A DNA stretch of 33,767 nucleotides. It comes from a virus. Under the pieces are notes generated by a model. It was not told the origin of the DNA, did not search any database, and worked only from the letters and a program-made list of their open reading frames with translations. Location of the stretch: positions 1 to 33,767 of IMG/VR virus record IMGVR_UViG_3300037193_001942; one strand, written 5' to 3'. Of the stretch, positions 1 through 31,711 are shown piece after piece. The position numbers and the translations under genes were made by a program. Each line of letters starts with the position of its first letter. The first letter of the stretch is position 1.

Positions 1-57
1 GCCGAGCGGGCCGAGGTGGAGCGGCGGCGGGTGGCGTGGCGGACCTGGGCGCGCTAG
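1..57 (+). CDS. 3' end of a truncated gene entering from the left edge
   Basis: Frame 1 is open from the first base and ends at TAG 55-57, giving a 19-residue Arg-rich tail ending WARTWAR-like (…VAWRTWAR). The stop shares bases with the stop of the convergent excisionase-like gene, the tight convergent packing expected of two real genes. Too little is present to name a product, and the frame could be open by chance. Confidence 0.3.
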   Translation, partial: AERAEVERRRVAWRTWAR

Positions 58-266
58 TGCTGCCCCTCGTCGGCCTCGTTCAGGTCGGGGCGATGCTCAG
101 TGATCCACGCTTCGACGTCGGCGGTGAGCCACATCCGCCCGGCCGCCGGCTCGTCGAAGGTGTCCGGCCAGGTCGGGAGCGCCAGGTAGTACTTCAGCCG
201 GGTCTCGCCGATGCCGAAGCGCCGCATGATCTCGGCGGCTCCCATGAGGCGGCCCGTGCGTGGCAT
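54..266 (-). CDS. Excisionase-like MerR/AlpA-type DNA-binding protein
   Basis: A 70-residue protein. Residues 8-33 (MGAAEIMRRFGIGETRLKYY) form the winged-helix first helix-turn-helix of the MerR/AlpA/Xis fold, followed by the aspartate-proline linker and GRMWLTADVEAW, the typical C-terminal strand-helix of small excisionase/AlpA proteins that read a DNA-binding site before an integrase. Family knowledge: such proteins direct integrase toward excision or control integrase expression. Context supports this, since a tyrosine integrase lies 0.6 kb away on the same strand. There is no clear Shine-Dalgarno before ATG 266; ATG at residue 8 is an alternative start. It could also be a general MerR-like regulator rather than a true Xis. 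Confidence 0.7.
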   Translation of the reverse strand: MPRTGRLMGAAEIMRRFGIGETRLKYYLALPTWPDTFDEPAAGRMWLTADVEAWITEHRPDLNEADEGQH

Positions 267-23785: not shown

Positions 23786-24579
23786 GTACCACCCTGGCCC
23801 GGCCGGCGGGGATCTGTCTGCGGGCGGCCGAGTTCCGCGCAGACGACGACCCCGGCGACGGCCGCACCCTGACCGGCTACGCCGCCGTGTTCAACTCGCC
23901 GACCCGGATCCGGTCATGGGAAGGCGAGTTCGACGAGGTGATCGCCCCGGGCGCGTTCAAGCGGACCCTGCGCGAGCGGACCCCGGTGCTGCAGTTCGAC
24001 CACGGCCGCGACCAGCGCACCGGCACCGTGCCGATCGGGTCGATCGACGACCTGCGCGAGGACGAGCAGGGTCTGTTCGTGTCGGCGCGCCTGTTCGACA
24101 ACCCGGTGGTCGAGCCGATCCGGCAGGCCATCGCCGGCAAGGCCATCACGGGCATGTCGTTCCGGTTCGCCGTCGCCGAGGAGCGATGGACCGACTCCGA
24201 CGGCAAGAAGGTCCGCGACGACGAACTCGCCCGGCTGCTGTGGGAGCCGGGTGACCGCGGCCCGCTGAAGCGCACGATTCTGCGCGTCGACCCGCTGTTC
24301 GAGCTCGGCCCGGTCGTGTTCCCCGCCTACGACTCCACCTCCGTCGGTGTGCGGTCGCTGCTGGCGCAGCTGACCCCCGACGAGCACCGCGAGATGCTGC
24401 GCGAACTGGCCGCCGAACTGCGGCAGGCCGGGCAGCTCCCAGACCTCACCGGGCGACCCGCGCAGGGTGCGGGTGGCGGTGAGCCAGGCACGCAGCCAGG
24501 GAACGGCGAGCGGCCAACCGTTTCGACCCGTTCGCTCGCCGACGACGGTGAGCTTCGCCTGAGAGGCATCCTGAAGTGA
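23782..24579 (+). CDS. Prohead protease (HK97 / U35 family)
   Basis: 265 residues from GTG 23782 (overlap with portal). It matures the prohead by cleaving the N-terminal scaffold of the capsid protein. Visible family features: LTGYAAVFNSPTRIRSW, EVIAPGAFKRTLRE, catalytic H74 in VLQFDHG, and catalytic S126 in GKAITGMSFRF, followed by RTILRVDPLFELGPVVFPAY. An acidic and Gly/Pro-rich C-terminal tail (about 190-265) is likely auto-processed. Genes on either side (portal and capsid) confirm the role. Confidence 0.92.
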   Translation: MSTTLARPAGICLRAAEFRADDDPGDGRTLTGYAAVFNSPTRIRSWEGEFDEVIAPGAFKRTLRERTPVLQFDHGRDQRTGTVPIGSIDDLREDEQGLFVSARLFDNPVVEPIRQAIAGKAITGMSFRFAVAEERWTDSDGKKVRDDELARLLWEPGDRGPLKRTILRVDPLFELGPVVFPAYDSTSVGVRSLLAQLTPDEHREMLRELAAELRQAGQLPDLTGRPAQGAGGGEPGTQPGNGERPTVSTRSLADDGELRLRGILK

Positions 24580-26057
24580 CCGAGATTCTCGACGAGCTGC
24601 GCGGCAAGGATGCCGCGGACCTCAAGGACGCCGGCCTGCCCGACGAGCTGCGCGGCAAGACCCCGGATGAGCTGGCCCGCTACGTCGAGGTGCTCGACGC
24701 GCACCTGCGCGCCCTGCATCAGGACGACGACACCGGCGAACTGCGCGACAAGACGCCGGACGAGCAGAAGGCGTTCGACTACGGCCTCAAGCTGCGCGAC
24801 CTGGCGATCGCCCGGATCGAGGAGCACCGCAACATCCAGGAGATCTTCCGCCGCAAGCCGAAGTCGGTCGAGCGGGCACTCGCCAACATCAAGTACGGCG
24901 ACGAGCCCGGCGGCAGCGTCATCCGGCTGTCCACCGCCGAAGCCCGCGACAAGGCGCTGCGCGTCCTCGACGACCGCAACGCCGCGGCGCACCTGCGTTC
25001 CGACCAGAAGGACCAGGTCGAGAAGGCGGTCCGCCGCAACTCCGACATCGCCCGGCGCATCCTGGTTACCGAGAACGACGCCTACCGGTCGGCGTGGATG
25101 AAACTGGCCACCGACCCGCACCCGATGCTCACCGACGACGAGCGCCACGCCGTGCTCGCCTACAACGAGTACCGGGCCATGTCCGAGGGCACGACCACCG
25201 CCGGCGGCTTCGGCATCCCGGTGTTCATCGACCCGTCGATCATCCTGACCGCGCAGGGCAGCGGGAACCCGTTCCTGACGCTCGCCAAGCAGGTGGACGT
25301 CAACACCAACATCTGGAAGGGCGTCAGCTCGGCCGGCGTGTCCTGGGCGTTCCAGTCCGAAGGCGTGGCCGTCACCGACAACTCCCCAACCCTGGCGCAG
25401 CCGCAGGTTCAGGTGTACATGGCCCGCGGTTTCATCCCGTTTTCGATCGAGGTCGGGCAGGACTACCCGGGCTTCGCCGACGAGATGCAGACGCTGCTGG
25501 CGTCCGGCTACGACGAGCTGCTCGTGGACAAGTTCACCCGCGGCTCCGGCACCGGCGAGCCCACCGGCATCGTGACCGCCCTGAGCGCGAACACCAACGT
25601 GCGGGTGACGGTGACGACCGGCGGCTCGTTCGGCACCCCCGACCCGTACAAGGTGTGGAAGGCGCTGCCGCAGCGCTACCGGCGGATGGCGAACTGGATG
25701 ATGAGCGTCGGCGTGAACAACGCCGTTCGCCAGCTCGGCACCGCGAACGTGTTCCACGCGTTCACCGAGAACCTGCCCGCCGAGTGGGCCGACACCCTGT
25801 TCGGCAAGGGCGTGTACGAGACGCCGTACATGAACGACGTCACCACCTCCACCTCGGCCACCACCGAGCTGGCCGTGGTCGGCGACTGGGCGAACTACGT
25901 GATCGCCCGCCGCGGCGGCATGAGTGTCGAGCTGGTGCCGCAGCTGTTCGACGTCACCAACAACCGGCCGACCGGCCAGCGCGGCTGGTTCGCGTACGCC
26001 CGGATCGGCGGCAACTCGGTCAACGACCTCGGTTTCCGGCTGCTCGTCAACGCCTGA
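24576..26057 (+). CDS. Major capsid protein, HK97 fold, with N-terminal scaffold
   Basis: 493 residues from GTG 24576 (GTGA overlap with protease). The N-terminal about 170 residues are charged and helical and act as the delta/scaffold domain. The HK97-fold body begins near ALAYNEYRAMSEGTTTAGGF-like residues at 190-210 and continues with QVDVNTNIWKGV, WAFQSEGVAV, the P-domain region FIPFSIEVGQDYPGF, and the A-domain end YVIARRGGMSVELVPQLFDV. The N-terminus has three repeats of (D/G)ELRxK: residues 6-11, 23-28 and 54-59. The protease upstream would remove the scaffold. Confidence 0.93.
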   Translation: MTEILDELRGKDAADLKDAGLPDELRGKTPDELARYVEVLDAHLRALHQDDDTGELRDKTPDEQKAFDYGLKLRDLAIARIEEHRNIQEIFRRKPKSVERALANIKYGDEPGGSVIRLSTAEARDKALRVLDDRNAAAHLRSDQKDQVEKAVRRNSDIARRILVTENDAYRSAWMKLATDPHPMLTDDERHAVLAYNEYRAMSEGTTTAGGFGIPVFIDPSIILTAQGSGNPFLTLAKQVDVNTNIWKGVSSAGVSWAFQSEGVAVTDNSPTLAQPQVQVYMARGFIPFSIEVGQDYPGFADEMQTLLASGYDELLVDKFTRGSGTGEPTGIVTALSANTNVRVTVTTGGSFGTPDPYKVWKALPQRYRRMANWMMSVGVNNAVRQLGTANVFHAFTENLPAEWADTLFGKGVYETPYMNDVTTSTSATTELAVVGDWANYVIARRGGMSVELVPQLFDVTNNRPTGQRGWFAYARIGGNSVNDLGFRLLVNA

Positions 26058-26067
26058 TCGCCAGCGA

Positions 26068-26093
26068 CGCCGGGGAGTGCCCGCTCCCCGGCG
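26068..26093 (+). terminator. Hairpin after the capsid gene, flanked by direct repeats
   Basis: Perfect 10-bp stem CGCCGGGGAG / CTCCCCGGCG with loop TGCCCG. It is flanked by CGCCTGATCG (26051-26060, containing the capsid stop) and CGCCTGATCG (26092-26101). It may lower downstream expression relative to capsid or stabilise the capsid mRNA. Confidence 0.7.
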
Positions 26094-26152
26094 CCTGATC
26101 GGCAAGGGGTGGCACGCTCGCACGCCGTACCTACCCCTCCCGAGGAGGAGCC

Positions 26153-26359
26153 ATGCCCGAGACCAAGCCCGAAACCGGCAAGGCCGACACGAAGCCCGAC
26201 CGCACCGCGCGGGTGGGCGGCCAGCTCGCGCCGGCGGCCGAGTCCTCCGACCCGGCCGTACACCAGCTGCTCGGTGACATCCAGACCGCGCAGATGAACG
26301 ACGACAAGGACGCCGAGGCCGCGGCCCGCGAGGACCTGCGCGCCCTCGGCTACGAGTGA
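26153..26359 (+). CDS. Small acidic protein after the capsid gene
   Basis: 68 residues from ATG 26153 with GAGGAGGAG upstream, a very strong ribosome site. Disordered basic/polar N-terminus (PETKPETGKADTKPDRTAR) and an acidic helix ending DAEAAAREDLRALGYE. It lies between two hairpin groups. Small ORFs here are often head-assembly or decoration factors, but no family is recognised. Confidence 0.62.
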   Translation: MPETKPETGKADTKPDRTARVGGQLAPAAESSDPAVHQLLGDIQTAQMNDDKDAEAAAREDLRALGYE

Positions 26360-26366
26360 CACGCAA

Positions 26367-26425
26367 CCTGCGGTAGCGCACCGCAGGCCAGGAAGCCCCC
26401 GGGAACTCCAGGCCCGGGGGCTTCC
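26367..26425 (+). terminator. Tandem hairpins downstream of capsid block
   Basis: First: CCTGCGG-N7-CCGCAGG (26367-26387). Second: a perfect 13-bp stem GGAAGCCCCCGGG / CCCGGGGGCTTCC with a 9-nt loop (26391-26425). With the hairpin at 26068 this makes three strong structures between the capsid gene and the sugar-cassette genes, a likely attenuation point in the late operon. Confidence 0.75.
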
Positions 26426-26442
26426 GCACACCTGGAGGAAAC

Positions 26443-26679
26443 ATGGACGTCGTCTACGCGACCGCCACCGCGGTCGTCCCCCTGCCCGGCGGAGGCCGGG
26501 CGCACGTCGCCAAGGGCACGCACTGGCCCGCCGACGACCCGGTCGTGCTGGGACAGCCGAGCCTGTTCAGCCCGGATGCCCGGTACGGGCTGAACTTCAG
26601 CACGCCGCCGGCCGGGTTCGACGCACCGGTCGAGCAGGCCACCGCAGCCCCCGGCGAACGGCGGAACCGCCGTGGCTGA
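26443..26679 (+). CDS. Hypothetical small protein
   Basis: 78 residues from ATG 26443 with TGGAGGA 7 nt upstream. A short beta-rich domain (DVVYATATAVVPLPGGGRAH) with KGTHWPADDPVV and an Arg-rich tail. Small proteins of this build (W/ADDPVV, then FS and P-rich tail) often follow capsid genes in actinophages; they may act as head-tail or capsid accessory proteins. It overlaps the glycosyltransferase gene by 8 nt. Confidence 0.65.
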   Translation: MDVVYATATAVVPLPGGGRAHVAKGTHWPADDPVVLGQPSLFSPDARYGLNFSTPPAGFDAPVEQATAAPGERRNRRG

Positions 26680-27451
26680 CCGGACTCAGGCCGTCACCGT
26701 CGCCTACGTGTGCGGCAACACCGTCGTCTACTCGTGGCACCGCAGCATGATCGAGCTGATCGGCTACGACGCCGCCAACCACCAGCGCATCATGGCCGGC
26801 GGGTTCATCGCCATGCGACACGGCACCGACGGGCTCGTGACCGCCCGCAACACCGCGGTCAAGACGTTCCTCGCCGAGGACAAGGCCGACTGGCTGTTCT
26901 GGGTCGACACGGACATGGGGTTCGCCCCGGACACCGTGGACCGGCTCCTGGAGGCCGCCGACCCCACCGCACGGCCGATCGTCGGCGCCCTGTGCTTCTC
27001 CCAGCGCGAGGACGAGGCCGACGGGATCGGCGGCTACCGGTGCACCGCCACCCCGACGGTGTACGACTGGGCACACGTGGACGGCCAGTACGGCTGGCAG
27101 GTCCGCTGGGACTTCCCGCCGAACACCGTGACCCGCGTGGGCGGCACCGGCGCCGCGTGCATCCTGATCCACCGGTCGGTGTTCGAGAAGATCGAGGCCG
27201 AACATGGTCGCGCCTGGTACGACCGGGTACCGAACACCACCACCGGGCAGCTGATCGGCGAGGACTTGTCGTTCTGCCTGCGCGCCGGCGCTCTCGGCGT
27301 CCCGATCCACGTGCACACCGGCGTCCCGACCAGCCACTTCAAGTACCTGTGGCTGGGCGAGGAGGACTACTGGCGGCAGGTGGCGTTGCGGTCGGCGCAG
27401 GAGAAGCTGTCCGGCCTCGCGCCGAAGGCAGCCGAGGCGGTGGCGCCGTGA
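26672..27451 (+). CDS. Glycosyltransferase-like protein (GT-A type), capsid-linked
   Basis: 259 residues from GTG 26672, overlapping the previous gene by 8 nt. The N-terminal Rossmann-like part (VTVAYVCGNTVVYSWH, LVTARNTAVKTFL) and DWLFWVDTDMGF at residues 73-84 give D79-x-D81, the metal/nucleotide-sugar DxD motif. A variable middle (VGALCFSQREDEADG) and GEDLSFCLRAGALGVPIHVH provide the acceptor-side signature. Predicted to transfer a sugar from an NDP donor, probably onto virion proteins, given its position just after the capsid gene (inference). Confidence 0.8.
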   Translation: MADRTQAVTVAYVCGNTVVYSWHRSMIELIGYDAANHQRIMAGGFIAMRHGTDGLVTARNTAVKTFLAEDKADWLFWVDTDMGFAPDTVDRLLEAADPTARPIVGALCFSQREDEADGIGGYRCTATPTVYDWAHVDGQYGWQVRWDFPPNTVTRVGGTGAACILIHRSVFEKIEAEHGRAWYDRVPNTTTGQLIGEDLSFCLRAGALGVPIHVHTGVPTSHFKYLWLGEEDYWRQVALRSAQEKLSGLAPKAAEAVAP

Positions 27452-28140
27452 CGGATCTCGTCGTCATCGTGCCGTCCCGCGGCCGCCCCGGCGCCGCCGT
27501 CGAGCTGGCCGCCGCGTTCGCCGAGACGGAGTCCACCAGCCGCCTGGTGTTCGCCGTCGACGACGACGACCCGACCCGCAGCCGGTATCTGGCAGCCCTG
27601 GATGCCTACCCGGCGACCACCGTGCATTTCTGCCTGCCGTTACTGCCCCCGTCGACCATGGTGAAGGCCCTGAATAGCGCGGCCGGCCTGTACGCGAACG
27701 AGGCCTACGCGCTCGGGTTCATGGGCGACGACCACCGGCCCCGCACGCAGGGCTGGGATCGGCTGTACGTGGAGGCGCTGCGCGAGCTGGGCACCGGCAT
27801 CGTCTACGGCAACGACCTCCTGCAGGGCGAGCGGATCCCTACTCAGGTCGCCATGACCGCCGACATTGTGCGGGCGGTCGGGCACATGGCCCCGCCGACG
27901 CTCACCCACCTGTACGTCGACAACTACTGGAAGGACCTCGGCGAGCGCGCCGGATGCCTGCGCTACCTGCCCGACGTCGTGGTGGAGCACATGCACCCGA
28001 TCGCCGGGAAGGCCGCGTGGGACGCCGGGCACGTCCGCGTCAACCAGCGGTCCATGTACCAGCGCGACAGCGACGCCTACGCCGACTACGCCGGTTTGCA
28101 CCTGGCGGTCGACATCGAGAAGGTGAGGGCGCTGCGATGA
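27448..28140 (+). CDS. Second glycosyltransferase-like protein
   Basis: 230 residues from GTG 27448 (GTGA overlap). It begins DLVVIVPSRGRPGAAVELAA, with FAVDDDDPTRSRY giving an Asp cluster (38-41) where a DxD is expected, then LGFMGDDHRPRTQGWDRLYV and GTGIVYGNDLL. This is the GT-A fold of the GT2 type with a shorter C-terminus. It acts with the neighbour GT; the acceptor is unknown. Confidence 0.75.
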   Translation: MTDLVVIVPSRGRPGAAVELAAAFAETESTSRLVFAVDDDDPTRSRYLAALDAYPATTVHFCLPLLPPSTMVKALNSAAGLYANEAYALGFMGDDHRPRTQGWDRLYVEALRELGTGIVYGNDLLQGERIPTQVAMTADIVRAVGHMAPPTLTHLYVDNYWKDLGERAGCLRYLPDVVVEHMHPIAGKAAWDAGHVRVNQRSMYQRDSDAYADYAGLHLAVDIEKVRALR

Positions 28141-28700
28141 TACGCAAGCGCCTCCGGCCGACTCCGACATCCGCCGAGCTGGCCAAGCTGTACGCCGCGC
28201 CACACGACCACCTTCAGTTCGACGACCACGTGTACCGGGTCGATGTCTCCTCGGCCATGGCTCATCACCTGCTCCCGCCGGGCGGGACCGTCGCAGACCT
28301 GTCCTGCGGCAACGCACTGATCGCTCGCCGCCTGCAGGCCTCCCATGGCGCCAGGATGGTTCTCGGCGACTACGCGCCCGGCTACCAGCACACCGGGCCG
28401 ATCGAGCAGACCATCGAGGCGATCGAGCCGGTTGACCTGTTCATCTGCTCAGAGACGATCGAGCACCTCGACGACCCGGACGCCGTCCTGGCGAAGATTC
28501 GCCGCAAGACGGCGCGGCTGCTGCTGTCCACCCCGGACGGCGAGACCGACGACAGCAACCCCGAGCATGTATGGGGCTGGGACGCCGAGGCGGTCGAGAA
28601 GATGCTGCGCGAGGCCGGGTTCATCCCGGACGTGCACACCACCGTCGATCTGCGCCCGGCGGGCGGCGTCTACGCGTTCCAGATCTGGGCGTGCCGATGA
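28137..28700 (+). CDS. SAM-dependent class I methyltransferase
   Basis: 187 residues from ATG 28137 (ATGA overlap). The Rossmann-fold SAM site is visible: VADLSCGNALIARRL (motif I, 52-66; the usual DxGxG is DLSCG), acid D78 in VLGDYAPG, and DLFICSETIEHLDDP (100-114), the UbiE/Coq5-type motif. The product methylates a small molecule or sugar more likely than DNA, as there is no target-recognition domain or DPPY motif. It probably completes a methylated sugar in this cassette. Confidence 0.82.
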   Translation: MIRKRLRPTPTSAELAKLYAAPHDHLQFDDHVYRVDVSSAMAHHLLPPGGTVADLSCGNALIARRLQASHGARMVLGDYAPGYQHTGPIEQTIEAIEPVDLFICSETIEHLDDPDAVLAKIRRKTARLLLSTPDGETDDSNPEHVWGWDAEAVEKMLREAGFIPDVHTTVDLRPAGGVYAFQIWACR

Positions 28701-29599
28701 AGGCCTTCGTCACCGGCTCGGCCGGTTTCGTCGGGCGGCACGTGGTTGCCGAGCTTCAGCGGCGCGGCTGGAACGTGATGCTCTGCGACGTCGCATACCC
28801 GGGCGGCCTCGGGCTCCCCCCGAAGGACGCACTCGAAGCGTTCCGGGTCATCGACGACATCCGGTTCGACCTGGTCGTGCACGCCGCCGCCTCGTCGCCG
28901 CATCGGGCCGCGATCGACGGCGAGCCGCAGCACTTCGCCCGCAACCTGCAGCTCGACAGCGCGATGTTCGACTGGGCGGTGCGTACCGACCAGGGCCGGG
29001 TGCTCTACCTGTCGTCGAGCGCCGCCTACCCGATCGACCTGCAAGACGACCACGCGACCGCGCGCCACCTGCGGGAGGACGACATCCGCTGGAATGGCCG
29101 CCGGAACCTCGGCAACCCGGACGCGGTCTACGGCTGGGCGAAACTGACCGGCGAGATGCTCGCCGAGCAGGCGCGCCAGGCCGGGCTGCCGGTCACCGTG
29201 GTCCGGCCCTTCTCCGGCTACGGGGAGGATCAGACGGAGAGCTTCCCGTTCCGGGCGCTCGTCGAGCGGGCACGCCGGCGCGAGGACCCGTTCGTGATCT
29301 GGGGCGACGGCAACCAGGTCCGCGACTGGATCCACATCGACGACGTGGTGGCCGGGATGCTCGCGGTCGCCGAGTCCGGCACCGACGAGCCGGTGAACCT
29401 GTGCACCGGCGTCGGCACGTCGATGCGCGAGCTGGCCGAGCTGGCGTGCGCGGTGGCCGGCCACGCGCCGCGTTTCGAGTTCCTCGCCGACAAACCCGCG
29501 GGCGTCGCCTACCGGGTTGGCGACCCGGCGCGGTTCCGCCAGCACTGCAAGCCGACGGTGACGCTCGCCGAGGGCGTCGAGCGCGCCCTGAAGTCCTGA
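28697..29599 (+). CDS. NAD-dependent nucleotide-sugar epimerase/dehydratase
   Basis: 300 residues from ATG 28697 (ATGA overlap). Extended SDR: GSAGFVG (7-13) is the GxxGxxG NAD site, LVVHAAAS is the conserved strand, LSSSAAY carries the catalytic Ser, and YGWAK (145-149) is the YxxxK catalytic pair; VRPFSGYGEDQ and RDWIHIDDVV are classic GalE/RmlB-type motifs. It converts an NDP-sugar (epimerisation, dehydration or reduction; substrate unknown). Adjacent GTs and methyltransferase suggest it prepares the donor sugar. Confidence 0.9.
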   Translation: MKAFVTGSAGFVGRHVVAELQRRGWNVMLCDVAYPGGLGLPPKDALEAFRVIDDIRFDLVVHAAASSPHRAAIDGEPQHFARNLQLDSAMFDWAVRTDQGRVLYLSSSAAYPIDLQDDHATARHLREDDIRWNGRRNLGNPDAVYGWAKLTGEMLAEQARQAGLPVTVVRPFSGYGEDQTESFPFRALVERARRREDPFVIWGDGNQVRDWIHIDDVVAGMLAVAESGTDEPVNLCTGVGTSMRELAELACAVAGHAPRFEFLADKPAGVAYRVGDPARFRQHCKPTVTLAEGVERALKS

Positions 29600-29615
29600 C
29601 GAGGAGGGCCGCGCC

Positions 29616-30152
29616 GTGGTTCAGTACGCGACCGCCGCCGAACTGGCCGGGTATCTCCAGCAGGACGTGGACACCTACACCGCGAACCAGGTCCTCACGC
29701 TGGCGTCCGGCCAGTTCTCGCAGGCCGCGTGCACCTGGTTCGAGCCTGTCGAAGTCACCTGGACGACGACCGGCACCATCGGCTCGTCGATCAGGCTGCC
29801 GTTCCGCCCGGTCACCGCAGTCTCCGAGGTCCGGGTCAACGGCGCCGTCGTGACCGGCTGGACGCTCGTCAAGGGCAAGCTGTGGCGGGCGGCCGGGTTC
29901 GGTAGTTCATGCAAGGTCCCTCCGGACGTGGTCGAGATCGACCTGACGCACGGCGAGACCGCAGTGCCCGACGACGTGAAGGCCGTGATCCTCGAAACCG
30001 GCGCCGCAGCCTACTCGGTGCCCGTCGGCGCGGTGATCGGCGAGTCGATCGACGACTACCAGGTGCGCTACGCGGCCACGGGCGGCGGCGTCCAGCTGAC
30101 CACGGCGGCACGCGAGCTCGCGCAGCAGTACCGCGGCACCTTCGCCGCATGA
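29616..30152 (+). CDS. Head-tail connector / adaptor protein
   Basis: 178 residues from GTG 29616, with GAGGAGGG upstream. YATAAELAGYLQQDVDTYTA is the opening helix of gp6/gp15-type adaptors; the middle is beta-rich (VTAVSEVRVNGAVVTGWTLV) and the C-terminal DDVKAVILETGAAAYSVPVG helix leads to the typical LTTAARELAQQY end. It attaches to the portal ring. It is separated from the capsid gene by the sugar cassette. Confidence 0.78.
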   Translation: MVQYATAAELAGYLQQDVDTYTANQVLTLASGQFSQAACTWFEPVEVTWTTTGTIGSSIRLPFRPVTAVSEVRVNGAVVTGWTLVKGKLWRAAGFGSSCKVPPDVVEIDLTHGETAVPDDVKAVILETGAAAYSVPVGAVIGESIDDYQVRYAATGGGVQLTTAARELAQQYRGTFAA

Positions 30153-30181
30153 CATTTGACCAGAACCAGGAGGGCTCGCCC

Positions 30182-30772
30182 GTGGGCATCGACTACGCCG
30201 CCGGCACCACGCACTGGCGCGTCGAGCGCTGGGACGCCGACCAGACGCGCTGGGCAATGCAGAAGCTCGGCGTCATCGACCACGGGCGCAGCATCTCCAT
30301 CCCGCCCGTGATCTTCGCCCAGCTCGGCGTGCGGCCGTACGAGGTCACCGAGCTGCTCGGCAACCTGATCACCAACGCCGGCTGGACCAGGTTGATGAAC
30401 CTGCTCACCGCCCAGGGCGGCACGCAGGCGCTCACCGCGACCGCGGTCCGGATCGGCGTCGGCAACAGCAACACGGCCGAGGCGTACACGGACACCGACC
30501 TGGCGGCGTCCGCGGGTGCGAGCAACCGCTACTTCCAGCCGGTGAGCGGCGCCGGCACGCTCGGCACCCGCACCCTGGCGTTCGCGGCGACGTTCGGCAC
30601 CGGCGACGGGAATTTTTCTTGGAATGAATTTGGCATCGACGTCGGCACTCCGACGGTGAGCGGTGGCACCACGGTCAACGCGCTGTTGTTCAACCGCAAG
30701 GCGGGCATCGCACAGGGCACGAAGGCCAGCGGGCAGACCTGGACTGCTACCGCCACGATCACGTTCAGCTGA
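30182..30772 (+). CDS. Phage virion-associated protein, tail/decoration type
   Basis: 196 residues from GTG 30182, chosen because AGGAGG lies 8 nt upstream; ATG 30149 overlapping the preceding stop is a possible longer start. Features: LGNLITNAGWTRLMNLLTAQ, VRIGVGNSNTAEAYTD and GDGNFSWNEFGID, a beta-rich module seen in many phage tail and baseplate hypotheticals. Codons for the NFSWNEFG stretch are unusually AT-rich (30611-30633). It lies between connector genes and may be a surface protein. Confidence 0.72.
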   Translation: MGIDYAAGTTHWRVERWDADQTRWAMQKLGVIDHGRSISIPPVIFAQLGVRPYEVTELLGNLITNAGWTRLMNLLTAQGGTQALTATAVRIGVGNSNTAEAYTDTDLAASAGASNRYFQPVSGAGTLGTRTLAFAATFGTGDGNFSWNEFGIDVGTPTVSGGTTVNALLFNRKAGIAQGTKASGQTWTATATITFS

Positions 30773-30787
30773 TCCGGAGGTCTCGCC

Positions 30788-31711
30788 GTGGCGAACCTCT
30801 TCACCTCGCAGACGCCGAGCAGCACCGACAACTCCGACGGAACGCCGGGGATCACGTTCGCCGTGACCGTGACGTTCGCCGTCGATGGCCAGGTGACCGG
30901 TGTCCGCTTCTACTCGACGACCACGGTCAGCGGGACGTACACCGGGGCGCTCTGGGCGGTCAACTCGTCCGACCCCGGCACCGGCACGGCGCTGGCCACC
31001 AAGACCATGGGCGCCGCTCCGAGCGCCGGTGCCTGGAACACGATCACGTTCGACACCCCGGTCTCGGTCACCGCGGGGGTCGCGTACCGGGCCGGGGTCT
31101 TCAGTGGCGCTGGGCGATACGTGGCCACGCTCTCATTCTTCGGCAGCGCACTGACCAACGGCGACATCACGGCGCCGGCGCACAACGGCTCGGCTGGCGG
31201 CTTCACGGTCAGCCAGGGGACGTTCCGCATCGACGCGAGCCTCGGCTACCCGAATAGTCCCGGCTCCGGCCAGACCAACTACTTCGCCGACGTCGAGTTC
31301 ACCGCGGGCGGTACGCAGATCAGCGTCTCCGACGCCGGGTCCGCAGCCGAATCCCTCGCGGTCGCGGTCGCGGCGGCGCTCGCCGAATCGGGCTCCGGCG
31401 CAGACTCCCCGACGTCGGCCGCAGCCGCGCCGCTCGGCGACTCGGCCTCCTCGGCGGAGGCGCTCGCGCCTGTCGCCGCGCTCGCGCTCGGTGACGCCGG
31501 CTCGGCCGACCAGGCGCTCGCAGTGGTCGCGGCCGTCGGGCTGACCGAGTCCGGTGCCGCCGCAGACGCGGGGGATGCCGACGATGGCACCAACGTGCCG
31601 AAGTCGTTCGGCGACACCGGCGCCGCGTCGGAGCGCCTGCGCACCACCACGGTCCGGCCGAACACCGGTATTACGACTAGGCCGTTCACCGGAATCACGT
31701 TCCGGCCCTGA
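30788..31711 (+). CDS. DUF4082 protein with C-terminal tandem repeats
   Basis: 307 residues from GTG 30788 with GGAGG upstream. Residues 1-170 form a DUF4082 domain (VTFAVDGQVTGVRFYST then TYTGALWAV, WNTITFDTPVSVTAGVAYRA), a beta-sandwich found in surface-exposed carbohydrate-related proteins. Residues 178-275 carry about five 18-19 residue Ala/Ser/Gly-rich repeats (consensus DAGSAAEALAVVAALAL-like). The end repeats RPNTGITTRPFTGITFRP, two RPxTGIT units. It probably protrudes from the virion, as a decoration or receptor-binding module. Confidence 0.8.
   Translation: MANLFTSQTPSSTDNSDGTPGITFAVTVTFAVDGQVTGVRFYSTTTVSGTYTGALWAVNSSDPGTGTALATKTMGAAPSAGAWNTITFDTPVSVTAGVAYRAGVFSGAGRYVATLSFFGSALTNGDITAPAHNGSAGGFTVSQGTFRIDASLGYPNSPGSGQTNYFADVEFTAGGTQISVSDAGSAAESLAVAVAAALAESGSGADSPTSAAAAPLGDSASSAEALAPVAALALGDAGSADQALAVVAAVGLTESGAAADAGDADDGTNVPKSFGDTGAASERLRTTTVRPNTGITTRPFTGITFRP

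What the first reader, a model, noticed from the sequence alone, without database searches (positions are those of the whole stretch)
26672..29599. Four-gene sugar cassette inside the structural operon
Seen: two GT-A-like proteins, a SAM methyltransferase and an extended-SDR epimerase, all overlapping by 4 nt, directly after the capsid block and before the connector genes. Known: some actinophages glycosylate capsid or tail proteins. Inference: the cassette builds a (possibly methylated) sugar and attaches it to the capsid or to the Ser/Ala-rich DUF4082 protein. The combination of all four with the head genes is worth a targeted study.
Basis: partly seen in the sequence, partly recalled or inferred. 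Interest (0 to 1): 0.65.

Follow-up and report, generated by a model that had tools for sequence, protein, structure and literature searches.

The report
Capsid-locked sugar transferase with swappable cassette
A soil actinomycete phage carries, between its capsid and connector genes, one sugar transferase that evolves in lockstep with the capsid protein, followed by an exchangeable set of enzymes for making, adding and methylating a sugar; this suggests that a whole group of phages coats its particles with interchangeable, often methylated sugars.

Summary
Four intact genes (GT-A glycosyltransferase GT1, second GT-A glycosyltransferase GT2, class I SAM methyltransferase MT, extended SDR) sit at 26672-29599 with three 4-nt overlaps, between the capsid block and a head-tail adaptor. 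Catalytic residues are invariant in 25-44 relatives per family. The same order recurs in many IMG/VR contigs and in prophages of Spongiactinospora rosea and S. gelatinilytica.

It is not one four-gene unit. GT1 is bound to the capsid gene: every relative of this capsid protein with enough sequence downstream has GT1, some phages have GT1 alone, and GT1 distances track capsid distances (r = 0.92-0.95) better than protease or portal do. GT2-MT-SDR behaves as a separate, exchangeable module (r = 0.15-0.21 to capsid), also found beside unrelated head genes. Where GT2 is missing, GT1 is usually fused to a second GT domain; further methyltransferase types occur at the same site. Best reading: GT1 primes a capsid-shell protein with a sugar and the module makes, extends and methylates it. 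The DUF4082 protein is not supported as general acceptor.

Virion glycosylation is known from mycobacteriophages, but Che8's transferases are not detectably homologous. A loop-RBS complementary hairpin ahead of the cassette looks new. No chemistry was tested.

The parts
24576..26057 (+). Major capsid protein (HK97-type), most likely glycan acceptor by co-divergence
   Evidence: PF05065 E 7.6e-29; MCP-GT1 distance correlation r 0.92-0.95
26153..26359 (+). g68: small protein with Thr/Pro/Lys/Ala-rich N-terminus, alternative acceptor candidate
   Evidence: 26 relatives between MCP and g78
26391..26437 (+). RNA element: 13-bp stem 26391-26403/26413-26425, loop 26404-26412; loop CTCCAGG (26406-26412) complementary to CCTGGAG (26431-26437) in the RBS of g78
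   Evidence: no Rfam match
26443..26679 (+). g78: small post-capsid protein ending VEQATAAPGERRNRRG; overlaps GT1 start by 8 nt
   Evidence: phrog_9538 connector E 0.002
26672..27451 (+). GT1: GT-A glycosyltransferase, capsid-linked; proposed protein-priming transferase
27448..28140 (+). GT2: GT-A glycosyltransferase, proposed extending transferase
   Evidence: mutually exclusive with GT domain fused to GT1
28137..28700 (+). MT: class I SAM methyltransferase with invariant ExxEH...H motif (HEN1/UbiG-like metal site), proposed sugar O-methyltransferase
28697..29599 (+). SDR: extended SDR nucleotide-sugar epimerase/reductase, lacks 3,5-epimerase Cys; 4-epimerase-like
29616..30152 (+). Head-tail adaptor, right border of the cassette
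   Evidence: phrog_442 E 2.7e-22
30788..31711 (+).
   Evidence: PF13313 E 3e-22; 1 of 171 loci

Best explanation
A capsid-dedicated protein glycosylation system in two layers. GT1 (shown: GT-A fold, invariant DxD; inferred: protein-directed) transfers a first sugar from a host nucleotide sugar to a capsid-shell protein, most likely the major capsid protein, possibly the small post-capsid proteins g68 or g78. GT2-MT-SDR is an exchangeable sugar module: the SDR converts a host nucleotide sugar (probably a GDP- or UDP-hexose) by epimerisation or reduction at C4, GT2 adds the product to the priming sugar, and MT puts a methyl on a hydroxyl of it by a metal-dependent O-methyl transfer. A stem-loop between the capsid genes and the cassette, whose loop is complementary to the next ribosome-binding site, probably keeps cassette translation far below that of the capsid. 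Shown: gene structure, families, invariant catalytic residues, recurrence, co-divergence, module swapping, fusion exclusivity, loop-RBS complementarity. Inferred: substrates, order of steps, acceptor, effect of the RNA element.
For: (1) Linkage: all MCP relatives with sequence beyond g78 carry GT1 right after it; GT1 alone sits between MCP/g78 and connector in Streptomyces, Nonomuraea and Acrocarpospora prophages. (2) Co-divergence: MCP-GT1 r 0.95 (27 loci) and 0.92 (66 loci), against MCP-protease 0.63 and, in a 45-locus subset, MCP-portal 0.79; MCP-GT2 0.15, MCP-SDR 0.21, GT2-SDR 0.58. (3) Fusions: 26 of 72 dereplicated capsid-linked GT1 proteins have a C-terminal extension; a separate GT2 gene is present in 5/26 of these and 36/46 of the others (Fisher p 1.4e-6). 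Extensions examined are GT domains, and the five exceptions instead belong to two small clusters, of which the one scanned (L173) is an FkbM methyltransferase domain. (4) Recurrent methylation: 53 of 67 loci have a methyltransferase within 4.5 kb after GT1, of several Pfam types. (5) GT1 fold neighbours include viral A197 of STIV, collagen galactosyl/glucosyltransferases, Mnn9 and polypeptide GalNAc-transferases; GT2 neighbours are mostly glycan-extending enzymes. (6) Precedent: mycobacteriophages carry glycans on capsid and tail tube; cluster O phages have an O-methyltransferase beside three GTs (PMC11256854, PMC12619734, PMC11600133).
Against: No chemical evidence. Linked neighbours co-diverge anyway, and the MCP-GT1 excess over MCP-protease is small inside the window's own clade (0.62 vs 0.57); there (10 loci) GT2 and SDR also correlate with MCP (0.61, 0.65). 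The capsid protein has no Ser/Thr-rich C-terminal tail, although in mycobacteriophages the glycans sit on C-termini. TM scores to solved GTs are only about 0.5 (GT1) and 0.6 (GT2), too low to assign substrate. Fourteen of 67 loci have no recognised methyltransferase.
Confidence: 0.68

Rival explanations
1. The cassette glycosylates another virion protein (tail tube, DUF4082 adhesin, or a fibre), and its place after the capsid gene only reflects late expression.
For: Mycobacteriophage glycans are on tail tube as well as capsid (PMC12619734). In the window and the two Spongiactinospora prophages a protein with Ser/Ala-rich repeats follows the cassette.
Against: GT1 distances follow the capsid protein more closely than portal or protease; the DUF4082 protein is absent from nearly all related cassettes, and the Ser/Ala repeat criterion found only the two prophages among all loci. 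Tail-tube co-divergence was not tested because the window ends before it.
Confidence: 0.15
2. Lysogenic conversion: the enzymes change the host surface glycan and block superinfection.
For: The phage is temperate (integrase, repressor-like genes) and SDR/GT genes of this sort occur in surface-glycan loci.
Against: No membrane-spanning segment in any of the four proteins (maximum 19-residue Kyte-Doolittle 0.94-1.22), no flippase in the four-gene cassette, and the genes are overlapped into the late structural operon.
Confidence: 0.06
3. DNA modification: GT2 and MT decorate phage DNA (GT2's phrog_2675 is labelled DNA methyltransferase).
For: Label of phrog_2675; phage GTs that glycosylate hypermodified DNA are known.
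Against: The label probably derives from fusions like that in phage phiAsp2, whose second half is Methyltransf_24 and was called a putative O-methyltransferase by its depositors. No hydroxymethylpyrimidine synthesis gene was seen among about 40 window proteins scanned; not every small ORF was scanned.
Confidence: 0.04
4. The genes are decaying or passenger morons with no current role in the particle.
For: The module is swapped and sometimes absent.
Against: Catalytic residues are invariant over relatives down to 34-45% identity, ORFs are intact and overlapped, and GT1 is present in every sufficiently long MCP relative.
Confidence: 0.05

Closest known systems
Virion glycosylation of mycobacteriophages (Che8, cluster F1; cluster O; Freeman et al. 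2023, Cell Host Microbe)
   Same: Phage-encoded GTs in tandem, methyltransferase beside GTs in cluster O, actinobacterial hosts, capsid as target (by report; PMC11256854, PMC11600133, PMC12619734).
   Different: Che8 gp108-110 lie near the right end of the genome, not beside the capsid. Gp109 and gp110 were compared with both profiles and gp108 with GT1 only; none was detectably homologous (hhalign probability at most 7.75%). Glycans there are on C-termini; the window's MCP has no Ser/Thr-rich tail.
Actinoplanes phage phiAsp2 pas33-pas34-pas35
   Same: pas34 carries a GT2 relative (42% identity over 99%) fused to a methyltransferase, flanked by two further GT genes.
   Different: Placed after tail genes; methyltransferase is Methyltransf_24, no SDR annotated, GT1 relative not found.
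GT2-like genes of Streptomyces and Arthrobacter phages (Tomas, Annadreamy, Mimi)
   Same: GT2 at 38-44% identity.
   Different: Beside a nucleotidyl/adenylyltransferase in many of them, not annotated with MT-SDR.
GDP-mannose 3,5-epimerase, GDP-fucose synthase, MoeE5 (SDR)
   Same: Best solved relatives of the SDR profile; same WGDGxQxR region as GME.
   Different: Catalytic Cys of GME/GFS replaced by invariant Ala109.
HEN1 small-RNA 2'-O-methyltransferase / UbiG-type O-methyltransferases
   Same: MT profile aligns with HEN1 including its ExxEH segment.
   Different: Weak match (E 9e-5); genomic setting is sugar genes, not RNA repair.

Membership tests
Phage virion-protein glycosylation system (mycobacteriophage type) | Phage-encoded glycosyltransferases with intact active sites | tested here: met
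Phage virion-protein glycosylation system (mycobacteriophage type) | Covalent glycan on capsid or tail-tube subunit | not testable with these tools
   needs virions and MS
Phage virion-protein glycosylation system (mycobacteriophage type) | GTs homologous to Che8 gp108-110 | tested here: not met
   hhalign probability 0.1-7.75% for the five comparisons made (gp108 against GT1 only); single sequences against profiles, so remote homology is not excluded
GT-A glycosyltransferases | GT-A fold and acidic metal motif (DxD or equivalent) | tested here: met
   GT1 D79xD81 invariant, GT2 D94-D95-H96 invariant; Foldseek probability 1.00 to GT-A enzymes
Extended SDR, nucleotide-sugar type | GxxGxxG and YxxxK | tested here: met
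   G7, G10, G13, Y145, K149 invariant; PF01370 E 2e-37
GDP-mannose 3,5-epimerase / GDP-fucose synthase | Catalytic Cys in the SSxC segment | tested here: not met
   Ala109 at that column, invariant
4,6-dehydratase (RmlB/GMD type) | Asp-Glu pair in the TDE segment | tested here: not met
   Segment reads SSSAAYP; S106, S107 and A109 invariant and S108, Y111, P112 nearly so; motif of RmlB from own knowledge
HEN1/UbiG-type metal-dependent O-methyltransferase | SAM motif I and ExxEH plus distal His | tested here: met
   D54LSCG58, E106xxE109H110, H144 invariant; ExxEH aligned to HEN1; metal role of the UbiG/HEN1 His from PMC9774615
HEN1/UbiG-type metal-dependent O-methyltransferase | O-methylation activity | not testable with these tools
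   needs enzyme assay
Gtr-type serotype conversion cluster | Membrane flippase and membrane glucosyltransferase | tested here: not met
   no membrane segment in the four proteins
DNA hypermodification pathway | Hydroxymethylpyrimidine synthesis gene in the genome | tested here: inconclusive
   none seen in scanned window proteins, but the contig is probably partial

The most novel reading that the evidence does not exclude
A large, unrecognised group of actinomycete phages has a capsid-glycan system built like bacterial surface-antigen loci: one constant, capsid-matched priming transferase, a swappable sugar-and-methylation module that sets the glycan type, and a new RNA element (stem-loop with loop complementary to the next RBS) that meters cassette expression against capsid expression.
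Probability: 0.4. Interest if true: 0.78.

Novelty: new variant of a known kind. Interest (0 to 1): 0.6.

Why it matters
Virion glycosylation in phages is documented for a few mycobacteriophages. This would extend it to many soil actinomycete phages, with transferases not detectably related to those of Che8, and would name a capsid-specific enzyme whose acceptor can be tested directly. Module swapping at one site would explain how phages change their particle glycan without changing the capsid, and the repeated, independent recruitment of methyltransferases points to a benefit of methylated sugars on particles. Prophages with the intact four-gene set exist in sequenced, cultured strains, so the question is open to experiment.

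Tried and rejected
Peptide EQATAAPGE[KR]R at the end of g78 as a GT1 sequon: rejected, since of 57 loci found by a pattern scan that have enough sequence downstream only 25 carry GT1, and GT1-negative ones mostly continue straight into other short genes, some of them connector-like. DUF4082 as general acceptor: rejected on conservation. Ser/Ala repeats as shared acceptor: found by regex only in the two Spongiactinospora prophages. First fusion table was wrong because fused GT1 proteins were among the queries; redone. phmmer and profile searches of GT1 and GT2 against PDB sequences gave nothing usable; fold search was needed. Promoter/terminator scan found none in 24400-31000; the hairpin was missed because it has no T run. 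Literature searches for capsid-adjacent sugar cassettes gave no direct precedent, but the Freeman 2023 text itself is not held.
Full report
What is there. The window is a 33,767-bp IMG/VR virus record of a temperate phage: tRNA-Thr at 19-99, integrase on the minus strand, repressor-like genes, RecE/RecT, O-like replication protein, TerL, portal, protease, capsid. Junctions: g78/GT1 overlap 8 nt; GT1/GT2, GT2/MT and MT/SDR overlap 4 nt; SDR to adaptor 16-nt gap.

What the proteins are. GT1: phrog_34859 and GT-A fold at pLDDT 92.9; best solved neighbours are A197 of the archaeal virus STIV, LH3 and COLGALT1, Mnn9 and polypeptide GalNAc-transferases, at TM about 0.5. GT2: phrog_14945 and GT-A fold at pLDDT 96.4; neighbours WrtF fucosyltransferase, chondroitin polymerase, TarP. 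This contrast, protein-directed versus glycan-directed neighbours, fits GT1 as primer and GT2 as extender but does not prove it. MT: profile matches HEN1 at E 9e-5; ExxEH and a distal His are invariant. In UbiG/COQ3 and HEN1 the corresponding His is described as metal-binding (PMC9774615). SDR: Ser-Tyr-Lys extended SDR whose best solved relatives are GDP-mannose 3,5-epimerase, MoeE5 and GDP-fucose synthase; the 3,5-epimerase Cys is an invariant Ala and no dehydratase DE pair is present, so C4 epimerisation or reduction is the more likely chemistry.

How general it is. IMG/VR scans gave 26 loci for GT1, 102 for GT2 (80 kept) and 64 for MT. Gene order MCP-(g68)-g78-GT1-GT2-MT-(second MT)-SDR-adaptor is common. 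The triad GT2-MT-SDR also lies in another head type, after a phrog_776 portal and a Mu F-like protein, and before a very large protein, and as SDR-GT2-MT beside other GTs. A GTDB scan found the full set in Spongiactinospora gelatinilytica and S. rosea prophages, GT1 with a long C-terminal extension and a different methyltransferase (c41) in Amycolatopsis pretoriensis, and GT1 alone between capsid and connector in Streptomyces, Nonomuraea and Acrocarpospora.

One plus three, not four. A scan with the capsid protein returned 19 further contigs; every one that continues past g78 has GT1 there, followed by different sugar genes: GT2-MT-MT-SDR, GT2 only, a C-methyltransferase (PF08421/PF08484) with GDP-mannose 4,6-dehydratase, another GT, another methyltransferase, or nothing recognised. 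Distance matrices: MCP-GT1 r 0.95 in 27 loci and 0.92 in 66; MCP-protease 0.63 (66 loci), MCP-portal 0.79 (45 loci); MCP-GT2 0.15, MCP-SDR 0.21; GT2-SDR 0.58. Inside the window's own capsid clade the contrast is smaller (MCP-GT1 0.62, MCP-protease 0.57), and with only ten module-bearing loci GT2 and SDR correlate with MCP too. The broad pattern is therefore that GT1 stays with its capsid over deep divergence, while the module is replaced.

Fusions. In 72 dereplicated capsid-linked loci, 26 GT1 proteins have a long C-terminal extension. A separate GT2 gene is found in 5 of those 26 and in 36 of the other 46 (Fisher p 1.4e-6; loci are related, so the p value is optimistic). The extensions fall into four sequence clusters; the two large ones (21 loci) contain the members scanned as glycosyltransferase domains, and none of these 21 has a separate GT2. 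The five exceptions form two small clusters, and the one scanned (L173) is an FkbM methyltransferase domain. Fusion exactly where the separate gene is missing is good evidence that GT1 works with a second transferase. Of 67 loci with enough sequence, 53 have a recognised methyltransferase within 4.5 kb.

RNA element. Between the capsid genes and g78 lies a strong stem-loop (window 26391-26425) whose loop CTCCAGG is complementary to CCTGGAG in the RBS of g78. In dereplicated loci with GT1, 61% have a match of six or more bases between loop and the 30 bases after the stem, against 8% when loops and downstream segments of different loci are paired; 0 of 2000 permutations reach the observed mean; 50 different pairing sequences occur, which is covariation. 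Loci without GT1 show 12-13%. No Rfam family matches at its threshold. The spacer between the stem and the RBS pairing is mostly 3-6 nt, tight for a pseudoknot over a 13-16-bp stem, so the two pairings may be alternatives rather than simultaneous. The GT1 association is partly confounded with capsid lineage, only about half of the pairings (32 of 60) met a simple SD-plus-start criterion, and the mechanism is inferred.

Comparison with the known. Mycobacteriophage Che8 has glycans on its capsid, and cluster O phages have an O-methyltransferase next to three GTs whose products modify capsid and tail tube (PMC11256854, PMC11600133, PMC12619734; the original Freeman 2023 paper was not available). 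Che8 gp108-110 are not detectably homologous to GT1 (all three compared) or GT2 (gp109 and gp110 compared) by profile comparison and lie elsewhere in the genome. phiAsp2 pas34 carries a GT2-methyltransferase fusion between two further GTs. So the kind, phage virion glycosylation, is known; the capsid-matched transferase family, the swapped modules at a fixed site and the RNA element appear new as far as this library shows.

Limits. No chemistry, no acceptor residue, no expression data. Start sites are predicted. Locus sets come from pattern-seeded scans and are biased to recognisable relatives. Mantel tests do not correct for linkage or for tree structure.

Noticed in passing
window 26391-26437; also L004, L009, L029, L033, L038, L045, L144, L163, L274: Stem-loop after the capsid genes whose loop is complementary to the next gene's RBS, with about 50 different pairing sequences in GT1-bearing phages; no Rfam family.
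   Followed up: partly
window 26632-26676 (end of g78); L004 g68; L109 (duplicated); L220-L298: Peptide E-x-A-T-A-x-P-G-E-[KR]-R at the C-terminus of the small gene after the capsid gene in a wide range of actinophage-like contigs (119+ stretches in IMG/VR), with or without GT1. Function unknown.
   Followed up: partly
window 30788-31711; L192 10736-11941; L193 11566-12771: Protein with DUF4082 (window) or a different N-terminal domain (prophages) followed by Ser/Ala-rich repeats, next to the cassette in all three; looks like a swappable-head particle protein.
   Followed up: partly
window 19-99 and 870-1688: tRNA-Thr at the very left edge with an integrase gene close by, as expected of an integration site; the record may start at attL.
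   Followed up: no
L112 9466-14979: 1,837-aa protein with an internal NUDIX hydrolase domain directly after the GT2-MT-SDR triad in a portal/Mu F-type phage lineage.
   Followed up: no
L004 8383-9551, L006, L018, L125: Tandem pair of distantly related methyltransferases (27% identity) in many cassettes, suggesting two methylations; the window has only one of the pair.
   Followed up: partly
L173 5934-7529, L177, L220, L285, L321: GT1 with a C-terminal extension unlike the GT domains, alongside a separate GT2 gene; in L173 it is an FkbM methyltransferase domain.
   Followed up: partly
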